From: a virus
Virus record (IMG/VR): IMGVR_UViG_3300037070_008393
Span: 1-21,937 of that record
Direction: 5' to 3' (one strand)
Length of the DNA: 21,937 bases
The notes below the pieces were generated by a model, which saw nothing but the letters and a program-made list of their open reading frames with translations, did no database searches and was not told the DNA's origin. The position numbers were made by a program, and so were the translations under genes. This document shows, in pieces, positions 57 through 20,924 of the stretch. Position 1 is the stretch's first letter. Every line of letters begins with the position of its first letter.

Positions 57-1013
57 TTATGCGCTAGCCGCCATCTCCCCGAGCACCTCAATGACGGCCC
101 GGCAGTCATCGGCCGCGCGATGCCCGGCGCCGGGTAGGGGATGCCACCGGTAGTCGCCTTGCCGGTACAGCGGTTCACCGTCGCGCGCTTCGTAATCCCA
201 CGTCCAGTCCCCGCACCATTCGGCGTAGGCCTGCATGGCGCAGTCTTCCCAGGTCTGTGCGGCGAGCCAGGCGCGTGCTGCCGGGTGGATGCGCCGCTGG
301 CCGTGGCGGGGCTTCTCCAGGTTCGCGTAGCGGGCGCTGTAGTGGTGGTGGAGGCCGACGGCCAGGCGGCGTTTGTCGAAGTCCCGGTTGTAGATGACTA
401 CCTTGCGGTCGTGGAGAGCTTCGGTGAGCGGCAACAGCAGGTCGCTGAAGGTGGGGGCCGTCGACACCGCAGCGTCGGTGATGCCGTGAATGCGGGTCGC
501 TTCGGCCGGGATGGGTACGCCCGGGTTGACGAGGCTCTCGAGGAGAACTGTCCCGTCGATATTGAGGATGGCGATCTCGACGATGCGCGCTCCGTCGTGA
601 AGGCCAGTGGTTTCCGTGTCCAGGATGACGCTGGCCGGGTCGTCGAGAACCTGCCGCGCCCACTTCGATGCAGCGTCGCGGTCGGCGCGCCACATCGCCA
701 TCAACTCCTGATCGCACCAGCCCTTGTGGATGCCGTCGCAGTGCGGGCACGCGCGCTGCTTCCACCAGGTCGCGCGTCCGGCGGCGAGCGCGGCGAGTTG
801 AGCCGGGGTCGACTTGAGCTGCGCGGTGGTCTGCTCGAGGACGTAGAGCGGGGCGTGGTGGTGGCGGGGCATGCAGTACAGCCACGCCCGCGGGCGAGCT
901 TTCTGCCCCGGCCGCAGGCGGCGGCCGGCGTTCCGGAGTTGAGCGCGGGTCATGAGCTGGGCGGGGGCGCTGCCGGTGCTGTAGACGGGCAGGTCCTGGT
1001 AGGTGGTGGTCAT
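57..1013 (-). CDS. DEDDh 3'-5' exonuclease (DnaQ/RNase T-like)
   Basis: A 318-residue protein whose C-terminal two thirds is a DEDDh exonuclease. Such enzymes remove nucleotides from 3' ends of DNA or RNA with two metal ions. The ExoI motif DTETTGL gives D132 and E134, the ExoII motif YNRDFD gives N209 and D213, and the ExoIII motif HRAADD gives H298 and D303, so all catalytic positions are present. The N-terminal 120 residues are not part of the nuclease core; they are basic and contain a possible zinc knuckle (C89, C92, H96, C100). The ATG is chosen because it follows AGGAG at five bases and overlaps the stop of the preceding gene as ATGA, implying translational coupling; longer upstream readings lack such a site. 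Whether the substrate is RNA (RNase T-like) or DNA (proofreading-like) cannot be told from sequence. Confidence 0.9.
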   Translation of the reverse strand: MTTTYQDLPVYSTGSAPAQLMTRAQLRNAGRRLRPGQKARPRAWLYCMPRHHHAPLYVLEQTTAQLKSTPAQLAALAAGRATWWKQRACPHCDGIHKGWCDQELMAMWRADRDAASKWARQVLDDPASVILDTETTGLHDGARIVEIAILNIDGTVLLESLVNPGVPIPAEATRIHGITDAAVSTAPTFSDLLLPLTEALHDRKVVIYNRDFDKRRLAVGLHHHYSARYANLEKPRHGQRRIHPAARAWLAAQTWEDCAMQAYAEWCGDWTWDYEARDGEPLYRQGDYRWHPLPGAGHRAADDCRAVIEVLGEMAASA

Positions 1014-1255
1014 GGCTGCTCCTGGGCGGGCGGGATGACGAGGGTGAGGTAGGCGCGGAGGGCGCCCGGGGTGTACCTGCTGGGTCGGTACGAGACGGCG
1101 CCAGCTGCGCCCTCGGCGGCTTGCTGCATGGCGGCGACCAGGCGCTGTACGTCCGTCTCGTAGCCGACGAGTCGGATCTCGACCGGAGTTCCAGGGGCGA
1201 CCGGCGGGCTTTCGGTTCGCGGTCGAGGTGCGCGGCGGGCTGGGGTGCGGGCCAT
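1010..1255 (-). CDS. Small protein of unknown function, coupled to the exonuclease
   Basis: An 81-residue protein. The first 25 residues are rich in Arg, Pro and Ala and probably disordered. Residues 25-80 look like a small alpha/beta fold: a strand (VEIRLVGYE), an amphipathic helix with VQRLVAAMQQ, and a final strand (LRAYLTLVIP). I recognise similar small proteins as hypothetical genes of Streptomyces phages and integrative elements, but no function is known to me. The ATG follows GAGGAG at seven bases. Its stop overlaps the exonuclease start (ATGA), so the two are one operon and probably work or are expressed together. Confidence 0.75.
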   Translation of the reverse strand: MARTPARRAPRPRTESPPVAPGTPVEIRLVGYETDVQRLVAAMQQAAEGAAGAVSYRPSRYTPGALRAYLTLVIPPAQEQP

Positions 1256-1458
1256 GGGTGAACTCCTCGGCGCGGGCGGCTGGTTGGGGCGGGTTCTGAT
1301 GCTGCCCTGTTCCTCGCATTGCTCGCAATCCCCCGCAAACTGGTTACACGCACCCCTATAGGGACGCGTGTGCGTGCGGGGATCTAGCGGCCTACCGCAG
1401 GTCCGGTAACGGCTTGGTAAAGAGTCGGTGCGTGTCCCTGCGCTCGAGCACGCCAGAA
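1256..1458 (-). promoter_or_regulatory. Non-coding leader of the exonuclease operon
   Basis: No gene is visible on either strand between the Ro60-unit terminator and the small gene starting at 1255. Because the terminator should block read-through, the promoter of the two-gene exonuclease operon should lie here. I see no convincing -35/-10 pair. The only clear structure is the 26-base palindrome at 1346-1371, annotated separately. Confidence 0.5.
1346..1371. promoter_or_regulatory. 26-base palindrome, candidate operator
   Basis: The left arm ACACGC plus CCC is matched by GGG plus GCGTGT around a central TATA, with only two unpaired positions (A·C at 1352/1365 and C·A at 1353/1364). As minus-strand RNA both mismatches become G·U pairs, so it could also fold as a hairpin of 11 pairs. 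It is 91 bases upstream of the small gene start in an otherwise empty leader. A symmetrical site like this is typical for a dimeric repressor, but no matching repressor gene is in the window. Confidence 0.4.
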
Positions 1459-1501
1459 CGCCCCCGCTCCCCCACCGCAGATGCTGTGAGGAGCGGGGGC
1501 G
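1459..1501 (-). terminator. Terminator of the Ro60 unit
   Basis: A perfect 12-base inverted repeat (CGCCCCCGCTCC / GGAGCGGGGGCG) with a 19-base loop starts 12 bases after the Ro60 stop codon. On the minus strand the 3' arm is followed by GTTCTGG, a weak T tract usual in high-GC actinobacteria. Its 3' arm plus tail, GCGGGGGCGTTCTG, is identical to that of the late-operon terminator at 3538-3567. Confidence 0.75.
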
Positions 1502-1513
1502 TTGCCGTTCGGG

Positions 1514-3187
1514 TCAGGACGCCTCTGTGGTCCAAGGCCACTTGGCGTCGCGGCCGGCTTCGAGGAGCGGAATCATGCGGAAGGCTGCATCGGTGAGACC
1601 GCCGAAGCAGTGCCGTCCGGCTGTCCCGCTCGGCATCACTCCAGGCTTGTAGCCAGCGAAGTTCCAGACGTACACGGGCGTCGTCCTCGGTACGAGGTCG
1701 TCGATGGCCGTCTCCCGCATGCCGCCATGGCCGTGCATGTTGGAGGGGAGCCATCCGGGACGGGTCTGTTCGTCGGTGACGATGACGATGCGGTCGTGGG
1801 CGAACCAGTGCTGTTTGACAGCGGTGGGGATGTCGGTGCCGTCGATCTGCCCGTACTGCTCGATGAGCTTGAGGACGCTGCCGCCCTTGGAAACGTCCAA
1901 CTGCTTGGACTGGCCGCCGAACTCGACGAGGGTCGGCTTCTCGGCGCGGAGGGCGAGCGCGGAGCCGAAGACCGCGGCCTGCTCTGCGAGAGGGATGTCC
2001 GACTGGTTCGGGGTGGAGAACATGTAGCCGGGGAACATCGACGGCGACCGGTCGACCAGGATCAGTGTGCTGCCCTTCAACTGGGGCACGTTGGCGAGCG
2101 AGTGGTTGAGAGCCTGCTCCAGGGCGTGAGCCCACCGCAGCGACGGGGCGTGCTTGTAGGCGGCCCACCAGCGGAACGGGAACATGCGGGACTTGGCGAC
2201 CTGCTCCAGGTCAGCGAACCGTGCGCAGATCTGCGCGGCCACCGAGTCGGAGACTCCGGCCTCGTCGAAGTTCCGCAGGTTCCGCGCGAGAGCCATTACG
2301 CCCATGGACGGAATCATCGCCTCCCAAGCGGCCTTATCCATCGGACCCTGCAGCCAGCCGGCCAGCGCCTCCCAGGTCATCCCAGCGGCCTCGAAGGTCG
2401 GCGCAAGGTCGTGGTGCTCGAGCATCTTGCGCCGTTCCTCGACGGGCCAGGCGAGAATTTCACTACGCCGCCGCAGAAGCTTCAGCGGCTCCGGGATCTC
2501 ATCGGCGTTGCCGTGGCGTCGGTCGAGGGCGTGCTGGAAGAGGTAGCCCTGCCAGGCCTTGCTGGAATCCGGGCTGGCGTGGACGAGGTTGAGGACGTCG
2601 CCGAATCGGTAGCCCTTGGAGTCGGTGTCGTACTTGAGCAGGCTGCGCTCGGAGTAGAGGCGCTGAACCGCATCGGCGATGCCGCGCTTTACTGGCTTGG
2701 GCAGCTTCCGTCCGTACTTGCTGGTCCAGTAGCCGAGCATCTCCCCCGGCTCGTCGGCGCGTTGGAGGACGGCGGCGATGACCTGCCGGTTCCAGCCTCC
2801 CCCGTTGGCGTTCTCGGCGCCGACGTCCGGTACGAGGTCTCCAGCGGCTGCCGCGTCGAGGCGGGCTTTGACGAACTCGGCGGCGCCGACGAGGGAGGCG
2901 CTCCGCATGTTGCCTTCACCGCGGAGCCAGCCGAGCAGGCCGACGGTCCACGCGGGGTCTTCGACGGCGAGCTGCCGGACGAGCTGGGTGTACCGGTCGT
3001 CGCGGTCGCCTCCCTTCTCGTAGAAGGCATCCTGGCCGACAAAGTTGCTGACGGCGAGGAGAAAGAGTTCGCCCCTCGCGTCGCGGAGGCGCCCGGTGGC
3101 GCCTTCGTGGGTGACGGTCTGCTCCCCGGTCGTGGTCACGGGTGAGTGGACGGCGGGACGAGCGCCGCGCTGATTGAAGCGAGACAA
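1514..3187 (-). CDS. Ro60-family RNA-binding protein (TROVE + vWA domains)
   Basis: A 557-residue protein of the Ro60/Rsr family, ring-shaped proteins that bind Y RNAs on their outer surface and the 3' ends of structured or misfolded RNAs in the central hole. The TROVE HEAT-like domain covers about residues 25-355; it opens with THEGA and holds the conserved-looking helices ELFLLAVSNFVG and KYGRKLPKPVKRG. The vWA domain (about 370-540) has a full MIDAS metal site: D379-x-S381-x-S383, T451 and D472. The TTG start is preferred: it gives an MSRFN N-terminus that I recall from related actinobacterial proteins, and GAGGGG lies seven bases upstream. A GTG at 3202 sits inside a hairpin and a GTG at 3139 has no ribosome site. 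The gene is directly downstream of two Y-RNA-like RNAs, the usual partners, and has its own terminator. Confidence 0.93.
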   Translation of the reverse strand: MSRFNQRGARPAVHSPVTTTGEQTVTHEGATGRLRDARGELFLLAVSNFVGQDAFYEKGGDRDDRYTQLVRQLAVEDPAWTVGLLGWLRGEGNMRSASLVGAAEFVKARLDAAAAGDLVPDVGAENANGGGWNRQVIAAVLQRADEPGEMLGYWTSKYGRKLPKPVKRGIADAVQRLYSERSLLKYDTDSKGYRFGDVLNLVHASPDSSKAWQGYLFQHALDRRHGNADEIPEPLKLLRRRSEILAWPVEERRKMLEHHDLAPTFEAAGMTWEALAGWLQGPMDKAAWEAMIPSMGVMALARNLRNFDEAGVSDSVAAQICARFADLEQVAKSRMFPFRWWAAYKHAPSLRWAHALEQALNHSLANVPQLKGSTLILVDRSPSMFPGYMFSTPNQSDIPLAEQAAVFGSALALRAEKPTLVEFGGQSKQLDVSKGGSVLKLIEQYGQIDGTDIPTAVKQHWFAHDRIVIVTDEQTRPGWLPSNMHGHGGMRETAIDDLVPRTTPVYVWNFAGYKPGVMPSGTAGRHCFGGLTDAAFRMIPLLEAGRDAKWPWTTEAS

Positions 3188-3194
3188 GAGAAAG

Positions 3195-3211
3195 CCCCTC
3201 ACTTGGAGGGG
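3195..3211 (-). promoter_or_regulatory. Hairpin holding the Ro60 ribosome binding site
   Basis: A perfect 6-base stem (CCCCTC / GAGGGG) with loop CAAGT is followed on the minus strand by CTTTCTCTT. The 3' arm GAGGGG is exactly the Shine-Dalgarno sequence for the TTG start at 3187. The element could therefore act as an intrinsic terminator for the upstream Y RNAs, as a structure that hides the ribosome site, or both. It lies 13 bases after the end of the Y RNA base stem. Confidence 0.6.
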
Positions 3212-3261
3212 AGGTTCAGCAGTGGGGTGCCCGAGATCAAGGTCGGCTGCGGAGACAAAGC

Positions 3262-3341
3262 GCTCTGGGCCACTGAGCTACCTCCGGTCCCCTGGACCGG
3301 CGGCCGGGATTCGAACCCGGGTCTCTCTCTTAGCAGGAGAA
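3262..3341 (-). other. Circularly permuted tRNA-like domain inside the Y RNA
   Basis: In transcript order: an anticodon-like arm (TTCTC, loop CTGCTAA, GAGAG; 3341-3325) with T33, A37 and a would-be GCU anticodon; a 4-base variable loop; a perfect T arm (CCGGG, loop TTCGAAT, CCCGG; 3320-3304); an acceptor-like 3' strand CCGCCGG followed by T-CCA (3303-3293); then the matching 5' strand GGACCGGAGG (3290-3281), giving ten positions with one A·G mismatch; TA; and a D arm (GCTC, loop AGTGGCCCA, GAGC; 3278-3262). The 3' acceptor strand is thus joined to the 5' strand, and the molecule opens between D arm and anticodon arm, where the Y stem attaches. It is not a standard tRNA gene because the parts are out of order. 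Confidence 0.8.
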
Positions 3342-3350
3342 GTATCCGCT

Positions 3351-3364
3351 GCCTGCGCACCGGG
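3351..3364 (-). repeat. Ro-binding 5' strand, repeated
   Basis: The 14-base minus-strand sequence CCCGGTGCGCAGGC occurs here in the tRNA-like Y RNA and again at 3448-3435 in the compact Y RNA, at the same place in each predicted stem. The flanking bases differ, so conservation is limited to the proposed protein-binding site and is not a general duplication. Confidence 0.85.
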
Positions 3365-3380
3365 CACCCCCGATGCTGTG

Positions 3381-3451
3381 CCTCCCGAGATCAAGTCGAC
3401 CTGCGGCAGAACTTTTCCAAAGAAGTAGCCGCGGGCCTGCGCACCGGGAGG
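3381..3451 (-). ncRNA. Compact second Y RNA
   Basis: About 71 nt, directly upstream of the tRNA-like Y RNA with nine bases between the stems. The base helix is CCTCCC (3451-3446) with GGGAGG (3386-3381). The next part repeats the Ro-binding strands: GGTGCGCAGG on the 5' side and CGACTTGATCTC on the 3' side. Above it a helix GCGGC / GCCGC (3432-3428 / 3407-3403) leads to a small ACTT/AAGT hairpin. There is no tRNA-like part, so this RNA would occupy Ro60 without offering the tRNA mimic. No promoter or terminator separates it from the next RNA, so both probably come from one transcript by processing. Two adjacent Y RNAs are also known in some bacteria (YrlA and YrlB of Salmonella). Confidence 0.75.
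3384..3395 (-). repeat. Ro-binding 3' strand, repeated
   Basis: The 12-base minus-strand sequence CTTGATCTCGGG occurs here in the compact Y RNA and at 3241-3230 in the tRNA-like Y RNA. It resembles the CUUGACU-type 3' strand of animal Y RNAs. Together with the 14-base 5' repeat it defines the shared binding module of both RNAs. Confidence 0.85.
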
Positions 3452-3470
3452 TGCATGAAGTTGTGGACCC

Positions 3471-3501
3471 ACTGTAACCGGTATGAGCAGTTACCTGTCC
3501 A
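3471..3501 (-). promoter_or_regulatory. Candidate promoter of the Y RNA/Ro60 unit
   Basis: On the minus strand TGGACA (3501-3496) is one base from the -35 consensus, and TACAGT (3476-3471) fits a TAnnnT -10 box. The 19-base spacing is longer than usual, which lowers confidence. Transcription would start near 3464, about 13 bases before the compact Y RNA stem. A promoter is expected here because a strong terminator lies just upstream at 3538-3567. Confidence 0.35.
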
Positions 3502-3537
3502 GACGATTGCTTGAACTCCCGCCCCAAACGACAGAAC

Positions 3538-3567
3538 GCCCCCGCCCTGCCGAAGCAGGGCGGGGGC
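3538..3567 (-). terminator. Terminator of the late operon
   Basis: A perfect 13-base stem (minus strand GCCCCCGCCCTGC / GCAGGGCGGGGGC) is closed by a TTCG tetraloop with a C-G closing pair, the very stable cUUCGg type. GTTCTGTCGTTT follows. It starts 11 bases after the stop of the 32-residue gene and marks the end of the structural and lysis transcript. Confidence 0.88.
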
Positions 3568-3577
3568 TGGGCGTCGT

Positions 3578-3676
3578 TCATTCACCGTCGTCGTTGGGCG
3601 GTGGTGGCAGGTCGGGCTCGATGAATGGTCTGGGTGACAGCCAGAACGGCGGCTGCTCGACGGTCTCTTCCTGCAT
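3578..3676 (-). CDS. 32-residue proline-rich small protein
   Basis: A very small gene at the end of the late operon. The product begins MQEETVEQPPFWLSPRPF and ends with PPPPNDDGE; it is acidic and proline-rich, with no membrane segment or cysteine. AAAGGAC lies seven bases before the ATG, a good ribosome site, and the gene fits between the stop of the previous gene (12 bases away) and the operon terminator. These two points are the support; I do not recognise a family and assign no function. Confidence 0.6.
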   Translation of the reverse strand: MQEETVEQPPFWLSPRPFIEPDLPPPPNDDGE

Positions 3677-19892: not shown

Positions 19893-20924
19893 TCAGGCCA
19901 TCGACTCCAGGGCGGAACACCAGGCCGTCAGATCGGTGGCAGGATCGAGCTCCACCGAGCGGGCCTTCGCACGCTTCGACGCCAGCCGGTACTCGGCCGG
20001 CGTCTTCAGTTTCCGCAGCACCGCCTCGTAGCCGGCCACATCGTTGCGGTCCACGAAGATCCCGGCCTCGCCGAGCGACTCGCACAGCCCAGGTGTCGGG
20101 TGGGCGATGACGGGGATACCGGAGGCCAGCGCCTCGCAGCCGGCCCGTCCCCACGACTCGTAGGACGAAGGCATCAGCAGGACACGAGTGCGGGCATACA
20201 CCCTCTCTCGCATGTCCTCACCGGGCACGTGCTCGACGACCTCGACGTTCGGCAGATCCGGAAGGATCTGCTCGCCGTAGGCGCCCTTCACGGCGAGGAA
20301 CTGCTGATCCGGCATGCGTTCGGCCAAGGCCCTGAGAACCTTGCCGCCCTTCTCCGGATTGCAGTTGACCAACGTGACAGCCTTCCCAGGCTTCGTCGCG
20401 TACTCGTCGGCGAACACCGGCGGACGCACAATCATCGACGACTCGGGCCGGATCGACTTCGGGTACTCGGCGAAGAACAGCTCCGCCTCCCGCTCCATCC
20501 ACAGGCTGTTGTAGACCGCCAGCGAGGTTCCGCCAGCAGCCATATCCCGGAACGTCGGACGGTGCGTGTTGTGGCAGACCACCACCAGCCGCTTCCCATA
20601 CCCGCGGGCCAGCGACGCCGTCGGCGGCACCGTCTCCAGATGGGCGAGCAGAACGTCCGCCCGCCGCACCGCAGACGGGAAGTCCAGGCGCGACTCCAAC
20701 GGCAACACCCGGATCCCGTGGTACTCGTACTCCTGGTGGGCCCTGCCGTAGCGTCCCAACCACACCGACACGTCGTGCCCGCGCTCCACCAAAGGACGCA
20801 GCATCGACACGAGCATGTGCTCGGCGCCCGCATTGTGCTCCGGGGGCATGGCGTGGACCCGGGCGACGATCCTCAGGGGCTTGGCTGCCCCGCCCGGCGC
20901 GGAAGCCGGGACAGCCCTGGCCAT
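19893..20924 (-). CDS. Glycosyltransferase, GT-B fold (family 4-like)
   Basis: A 343-residue enzyme that transfers a sugar from a nucleotide or other activated donor. The N-terminal Rossmann domain (about 15-170) has PLRIVARVHAMPPEHNAGAEHML, typical of acceptor-side GT4 domains; the C-terminal domain has the EX7E motif with E256 and E264 (ESWGRAGCEALASGIPVIA), the donor-binding mark of GT4. No membrane segment is seen. The ATG overlaps the capsid stop by one base (TGATG), so it is co-translated with the capsid. Some actinobacteriophages glycosylate their capsid or tail proteins; this enzyme is a good candidate for that, though a role in altering host surface sugars is possible. Confidence 0.9.
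   Translation of the reverse strand: MARAVPASAPGGAAKPLRIVARVHAMPPEHNAGAEHMLVSMLRPLVERGHDVSVWLGRYGRAHQEYEYHGIRVLPLESRLDFPSAVRRADVLLAHLETVPPTASLARGYGKRLVVVCHNTHRPTFRDMAAGGTSLAVYNSLWMEREAELFFAEYPKSIRPESSMIVRPPVFADEYATKPGKAVTLVNCNPEKGGKVLRALAERMPDQQFLAVKGAYGEQILPDLPNVEVVEHVPGEDMRERVYARTRVLLMPSSYESWGRAGCEALASGIPVIAHPTPGLCESLGEAGIFVDRNDVAGYEAVLRKLKTPAEYRLASKRAKARSVELDPATDLTAWCSALESMA

What the first reader, a model, noticed from the sequence alone, without database searches (positions are those of the whole stretch)
1459..3501. A self-contained phage Ro60 unit with two Y RNAs
Between the late-operon terminator and its own terminator sit a candidate promoter, two Y-RNA-like RNAs and a Ro60 gene. Ro60 is mostly known from cells, where it binds Y RNAs, helps rRNA maturation under stress and, in Deinococcus, joins polynucleotide phosphorylase in an RNA-degrading machine. 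A complete RNA-protein set as an independent cassette in a phage suggests the virus brings its own RNA surveillance or tRNA-handling device, perhaps to redirect host exonucleases or to survive host tRNA damage.
Basis: partly seen in the sequence, partly recalled or inferred. Interest (0 to 1): 0.92.

Follow-up and report, generated by a model that had tools for sequence, protein, structure and literature searches.

The report
Phage Ro60 with two Y RNAs
This Streptomyces-type phage carries its own Ro60 RNA-binding protein gene plus two small Y RNAs, one shaped like a transfer RNA; the pair is real and its RNA structure is strongly supported, but phages with Ro60 and Y RNAs were already known.

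Summary
On the minus strand lie a short Y RNA (3451-3381), a long Y RNA (3370-3224) and a Ro60 gene (3187-1514, TTG start), flanked by strong hairpins. A covariance model finds exactly these two RNAs in the window (145.8 and 42.2 bits; next best 13.7). In 30 relatives of the long RNA, 95% of pair cells form and 26 of 35 pairs show compensatory changes. The long RNA holds a circularly permuted tRNA: the elbow nucleotides are invariant, the acceptor stem is hypervariable but 94% paired, and there is no anticodon or CCA. ARAGORN miscalls it tRNA-Ser.

It is not new in kind. Phage Ro60 is routinely annotated and one has a solved structure; Y RNAs in mycobacteriophages are published. Streptomyces chromosomes carry a similar layout. 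The phage Ro60 forms its own clade, so it is not a recent copy of the host gene. Relatives sit next to integrase, a lysogenic-conversion position.

Most likely it makes a Ro RNP in the lysogen or infected cell, the tRNA-like arm docking a host RNA enzyme such as PNPase (inferred). Less expected extras: Y RNA arrays in phages of several bacterial phyla, a terminator-like hairpin holding the Ro60 ribosome site (21 of 21 relatives), and two Y RNAs with an unpermuted tRNA.

The parts
3538..3567 (-). strong G+C hairpin upstream of the cassette (terminator-like, weak T tail)
   Evidence: strand folding -44 kcal/mol for 3525-3580, z -7.3
3471..3501 (-). candidate promoter: TGGACA (3501-3496), 19 nt, TACAGT (3476-3471)
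   Evidence: not found by the sigma-70 scan; the TACAGT/TATGGT element and the following ACAACTTC recur in most of 21 close relatives
3381..3451 (-). short Y RNA (Y-S): Ro-binding-type basal stem and a simple hairpin, no tRNA-like part
   Evidence: R1 42.2 bits, 4e-9, for 3378-3454; 20-sequence alignment; fold z -2.4
3224..3370 (-). long Y RNA (Y-M): 10-bp closing stem with the same GGUGCGCAGG...CUUGAUCUC basal element, UACUUC motif, then a tRNA-like module
   Evidence: R1 145.8 bits; covariation
3262..3320 (-). circularly permuted tRNA-like module: T arm (3320-3304), closed acceptor hairpin (3303-3281), D arm (3278-3262)
   Evidence: sub-threshold Rfam YrlA match to 3262-3323; the ARAGORN 'tRNA-Ser' call 3293-3363 is a false reading of it
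3195..3211 (-). terminator-like hairpin CCCCTC-CAAGT-GAGGGG + CTTTCTC; its 3' arm is the Shine-Dalgarno of Ro60, 7 nt from the start codon
   Evidence: present in 21 of 21 close phage relatives, absent from nearly all host chromosomal loci examined
1514..3187 (-). Ro60/Rsr homologue, 557 aa, TROVE ring plus vWFA domain with intact DxSxS (D379, S381, S383)
1455..1503 (-). strong G+C hairpin after Ro60 (terminator-like, same GGGGGCGTTCT tail as the upstream one)
   Evidence: strand folding z -5.6

Best explanation
It is a self-contained Ro ribonucleoprotein cassette in the lysogenic-conversion position of a temperate Streptomyces-type phage. Shown by sequence: a Ro60 protein of the right fold, two Y RNAs, the tRNA-like module, the hairpins, and integrase next to the cassette in relatives. 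Inferred: one transcript starts near 3464 and is mostly stopped at the hairpin 3211-3195, giving more Y RNA than Ro60 mRNA; occasional read-through, whose ribosome site lies in that hairpin, gives Ro60. The Ro60 ring binds the basal stem shared by both Y RNAs. The long RNA presents its tRNA-shaped arm, recognised by its elbow rather than by acceptor sequence or anticodon, to a host RNA enzyme, most likely PNPase or a tRNA-elbow enzyme, making an RNA decay or quality-control complex as in Deinococcus and Salmonella. The short RNA, lacking that arm, would only gate the ring.
For: Ro60 fold and family. Two Y RNAs above chance. In 30 of 30 long RNAs U8, A14, the D-loop GG (18-19), A21, U54, U55, C56 and A58 are kept, while the acceptor stem has entropy 1.2-1.3 bits against 0.26 for the T loop and stays 94% paired. 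A similar layout lies upstream of Ro60 on Streptomyces chromosomes. Integrase neighbours Ro60 in L002, L005, L007, L009, L013, L014, L016, L021, L022. Hairpin plus Shine-Dalgarno in 21 of 21. Literature: the YrlA basal stem holds Rsr, its tRNA-like domain binds PNPase, and it is modified by DusA and TruB (PMC8394870).
Against: No expression, binding or PNPase data; no PNPase gene seen in the 22-kb fragment. The hairpin's T tract is short. The promoter is not recognised by a consensus scan. Nothing in the neighbourhood names the effector: the DnaQ-like exonuclease beside Ro60 recurs in only one other relative.
Confidence: 0.55

Rival explanations
1. tRNA-shaped decoy: the Y RNAs, shielded by Ro60, soak up host enzymes or defence factors that recognise the tRNA elbow, protecting phage and host tRNAs during infection.
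For: The elbow is kept and the acceptor varies; arrays of several diversified mimics lie beside Ro60 in phages; two Y RNAs hold an in-order tRNA with an anticodon arm.
Against: Host chromosomes keep the same RNAs, which a purely anti-host decoy does not explain; this RNA has no anticodon loop; Salmonella YrlA was not cut by the SOS-induced anticodon nuclease (PMC7790460), though a competitive-inhibitor role was suggested there.
Confidence: 0.18
2. RNA-repair aid: the Ro RNP holds damaged tRNAs for a ligase, as in the Salmonella rsr-yrlBA-rtcBA operon.
For: In Streptomyces phage Kela the order is Y RNAs, RNA ligase (PF09414 2.5e-17), Ro60; Ro60 sits inside tRNA clusters in several large phages.
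Against: No RNA ligase near Ro60 in the window, and none annotated in the other annotated regions fetched.
Confidence: 0.14
3. Interference with the host's own Ro RNP: phage Y RNAs or Ro60 compete with host ones.
For: 26 of 41 sampled Streptomyces genomes have a TROVE gene; host Ro60 is about 60% identical and host Y RNAs fit the same model.
Against: A third of sampled hosts show no Ro60; the phage keeps a full protein with an intact MIDAS, which a sponge would not need.
Confidence: 0.1
4. An ordinary tRNA-Ser gene beside an unrelated RNA-binding protein.
For: ARAGORN reports tRNA-Ser(gct) at 3293-3363.
Against: That reading joins the Y stem to the T arm; anticodon, CCA and arm order are wrong; the 147-nt structure covaries.
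Confidence: 0.01

Closest known systems
YrlA / bacterial Y RNA with Rsr (Salmonella rsr-yrlBA operon, Rfam RF02553)
   Same: basal Ro-type stem; permuted tRNA-like module in the order T, acceptor, D; gene beside Ro60; a second Y RNA alongside (YrlB there, Y-S here)
   Different: below Rfam's gathering score (19.4 of 69 bits); no rtcBA; carried by a phage; RNAs lie upstream of Ro60 with a hairpin at its ribosome site
Streptomyces chromosomal Ro60-Y RNA locus
   Same: Y RNAs of both types directly upstream of Ro60
   Different: often three RNAs (long, short, long); separate Ro60 clade, about 60% identity; nearly all lack the terminator-like hairpin
Y RNAs and Ro proteins of mycobacteriophages and other phages; Thermus phage phiLo Ro60 (PDB 9l5y)
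   Same: phage-borne Ro60; mycobacteriophages are reported to have Y RNAs (cited in PMC12282133)
   Different: mostly large phages; here a temperate-type phage with the cassette between the late genes and, in relatives, integrase
Deinococcus RYPER (Rsr-Y RNA-PNPase)
   Same: works-like model: Ro ring tethered by a Y RNA to PNPase
   Different: PNPase contact untested here

Membership tests
Ro60/Rsr (TROVE) | TROVE sequence domain | tested here: met
   PF05731 4e-12, above cut-off; profile matches human and frog Ro60 and Deinococcus Rsr
Ro60/Rsr (TROVE) | ring of helical repeats plus vWFA domain | tested here: met
   AlphaFold model; all 13 PDB matches with E<=0.001 are Ro60/Rsr
Ro60/Rsr (TROVE) | MIDAS DxSxS | tested here: met
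   D379, S381, S383 invariant in alignments A3 and A4
Ro60/Rsr (TROVE) | binds Y RNA and misfolded RNA | not testable with these tools
   needs biochemistry
Bacterial Y RNA (YrlA type) | closing stem between the RNA's ends with a conserved internal element | tested here: met
   shared by Y-S and Y-M
Bacterial Y RNA (YrlA type) | tRNA-like T, acceptor and D arms | tested here: met
   (Y-M only; Y-S lacks it)
Bacterial Y RNA (YrlA type) | Rfam RF02553 gathering score | tested here: not met
   19.4 of 69 bits; a Xanthomonas phage member reaches 50 bits, 3e-10. The Rfam model is narrow: none of the 12 related loci scanned passes it either. A score cut-off, not a biological feature
Bacterial Y RNA (YrlA type) | encoded beside Ro60 | tested here: met
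   window, phage and host loci
RYPER (Ro-Y RNA-PNPase machine) | Y RNA tethers PNPase | not testable with these tools
   a host protein would be needed; binding assay required
tRNA gene | D-anticodon-T order, anticodon loop, open acceptor end | tested here: not met
   order is T-acceptor-D, acceptor closed by a loop, no anticodon arm
Salmonella-type RNA repair operon | rtcB/rtcA or another RNA ligase in the unit | tested here: not met
   no such gene between the flanking hairpins 1455-3567; Kela has an RNA ligase

The most novel reading that the evidence does not exclude
Phages of several bacterial phyla keep arrays of diversifying Y RNAs whose tRNA modules are mounted in two ways, by the anticodon stem (permuted) or by the acceptor end (in order), as swappable shape mimics that tie different host tRNA-binding enzymes to a phage Ro60 ring.
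Probability: 0.2. Interest if true: 0.8.

Novelty: new member of a known kind. Interest (0 to 1): 0.5.

Why it matters
Why phages carry Ro60 and Y RNAs is open. This group gives a compact, two-RNA, temperate version in Streptomyces, a genus in which some species have their own Ro60 and some apparently do not, so the function can be tested by deletion. The pattern 'elbow fixed, acceptor free, anticodon absent' narrows the partner to something that reads tRNA shape. The covariance model also recovers Y RNAs that Rfam misses and shows that several phage 'tRNA genes' in GenBank are parts of Y RNAs.

Tried and rejected
Rfam at gathering score: nothing in 12 related loci except tRNAs, and only chance matches in the whole window. 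Sigma-70 scan: no site. Folding energy alone: z only about -2.5, not decisive. The neighbouring DnaQ-like exonuclease as a partner: conserved beside Ro60 only in L016, dropped. Recent host capture: rejected, the Ro60 lies in a phage-only clade of 16 (100/99) apart from the 18-member Streptomyces and Kitasatospora chromosomal clade (100/99); the few 'cellular' sequences beside the phage clade (L039-L043) may be old prophage remnants, not resolved. A known defence family for Ro60: no PADLOC hit. Key Y RNA papers (Chen 2013 and 2014, Sim 2020) are not held; their content is cited through other papers.

Full report
WHAT IS THERE. The window is a 21,937-base virus fragment with capsid, tail, tape-measure and lysis genes on the minus strand. 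After the lysis genes, between two strong hairpins (3567-3538 and about 1503-1455; z -7.3 and -5.6), lie two RNAs and a Ro60 gene, all on the minus strand. The Ro60 gene runs 3187-1514: 557 aa, TTG start where relatives have ATG or GTG. It matches Pfam TROVE (4e-12), PHROG 850 over nearly its full length (3.5e-45), and human and frog Ro60 and Deinococcus Rsr by profile. Its AlphaFold model (pLDDT 81, pTM 0.79) finds 13 PDB chains at E<=0.001, all Ro60/Rsr, among them a Ro60 from Thermus phage phiLo (9l5y). The MIDAS residues are invariant.

THE TWO RNAS. Y-S (3451-3381) and Y-M (3370-3224) share the basal element GGUGCGCAGG ... CUUGAUCUC inside different closing stems, and the motif UACUUC. 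A 30-sequence alignment of Y-M relatives from phages gives a 35-pair structure: 95.4% of cells paired, 26 pairs with changes on both sides, 129 such cells against 31 in column shuffles and at most 40 when partners are slid. The model R1 built from it, run with all filters off on the whole window, gives 145.8 bits for Y-M, 42.2 bits for Y-S and at most 13.7 elsewhere. Y-M is part of the model; Y-S is not, so its score is independent support.

THE tRNA-LIKE MODULE. Within Y-M (3320-3262) lie a T arm, a closed acceptor hairpin and a D arm, in that order: a tRNA opened at the anticodon and mounted on the Y stalk. In 30 of 30 sequences the positions equivalent to U8, A14, the D-loop GG, A21, U54, U55, C56 and A58 are kept, while the acceptor stem is the most variable part (entropy 1.2-1.3 bits against 0.26 for the T loop) yet 94% paired. 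There is no anticodon loop and no CCA. Rfam's YrlA model matches just this module at low score (19.4 bits); a Xanthomonas phage member matches YrlA over its full length (50 bits, 3e-10). ARAGORN's tRNA-Ser and several GenBank tRNA genes in other phages fall on such modules.

THE HAIRPIN BEFORE Ro60. In 21 of 21 close relatives (the window included) a hairpin CCCCTC-loop-GAGGGG with a T-rich tail ends 6-9 nt before the start codon, and its 3' arm is the Shine-Dalgarno-like stretch. Nearly all host chromosomal loci examined lack it; most have GAATTCGGGGGAATTC instead. The reading (transcription mostly stops after the Y RNAs and Ro60 is made from read-through) is inference.

RELATIVES. 62 of 50,697 phage records have Ro60 by tblastn. 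R1 finds Y RNAs beside Ro60 in phages of Streptomyces, Gordonia, Arthrobacter, Caulobacter (six), Xanthomonas (three), Rhizobium (five) and Microcystis, and one about 2 kb upstream in Bacillus phage G; none reached in L028, L122 or L124, and only a weak match in phiLo (L119). Streptomyces chromosomes carry long and short Y RNAs upstream of their own Ro60, and 26 of 41 sampled genomes of that genus have a TROVE gene. In the Ro60 tree the window lies in a phage-only clade of 16 (100/99), apart from the Streptomyces and Kitasatospora chromosomal clade. In nine relatives a tyrosine-recombinase integrase lies within a few kilobases of the cassette, the usual place of lysogenic-conversion genes.

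HOW IT PROBABLY WORKS. Published bacterial Ro-Y RNA systems tie Rsr by the basal stem and PNPase by the tRNA-like domain, and the latter is modified by DusA and TruB (PMC8394870; PMC9879122). The anatomy here fits that model: the part that must be read is the elbow. This step, and any benefit to the phage, is inferred. Decoy, repair and interference models are listed as rivals; the Kela order Y RNAs - RNA ligase - Ro60 keeps the repair model alive for large phages.

KNOWN OR NEW. Phage Ro60 is known by annotation and structure; Y RNAs in mycobacteriophages were reported by Chen 2014 (as cited in PMC12282133), and Ro/TROVE proteins in jumbo phages are noted in PMC7824862 and PMC7765460. The window is therefore a new member of a known kind. 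What I did not find described in the papers available here: the conserved hairpin at the Ro60 ribosome site, the breadth of Y RNA arrays across phages of different phyla, and Y RNAs with an in-order tRNA (L030 6762-6908, Rfam tRNA 61.7 bits; Rhizobium phage RHph_Y65, L125 2131-2278, 33.8 bits; the only two found in a motif scan of the fetched loci). The most relevant reviews were not readable here, so these points need checking against them.

Noticed in passing
L030:6762-6908 and L125:2131-2278: Y RNAs whose tRNA part is in normal order (D, anticodon, T) and mounted by its acceptor end instead of the anticodon; found in two unrelated phages (Rfam tRNA 61.7 and 33.8 bits).
   Followed up: partly
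L031:2215-2289, L032:2223-2296, L035:2126-2197, L127:2697-2787: GenBank tRNA genes (GiJojo Arg, Alone3 Ser, VanLee Arg, Frankenweenie Pro) lie inside or overlap Y RNAs and are probably misannotations.
   Followed up: partly
L120:2608-2765 and L120:2784-2915: Caulobacter phage CcrPW: two Y RNAs of the array have a D arm of class II (Leu/Ser) type, one apparently with a long variable arm, so different RNAs of one array seem to mimic different tRNAs.
   Followed up: no
L034:1277-4117: Streptomyces phage Kela: Y RNAs, RNA ligase (PF09414) and Ro60 in one row, resembling the cellular RNA-repair operon.
   Followed up: partly
L015:3811-3916: A shortened long-type Y RNA (106 nt) that keeps a T arm but has lost the D arm and acceptor hairpin.
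   Followed up: no
window 57-1040 (-): DnaQ-like DEDDh exonuclease after Ro60, with PADLOC matches to CRISPR-associated DEDDh and PDC-S48; beside Ro60 in only one other relative (L016).
   Followed up: partly
L045-L077 (Streptomyces chromosomes), just before Ro60: The host Ro60 ribosome site sits in a conserved palindrome GAATTCGGGGGAATTC, another possible translational hairpin.
   Followed up: no
window 19893-20924 (-): A glycosyltransferase-like gene (phrog_26352) directly after the major capsid gene, inside the structural operon.
   Followed up: no
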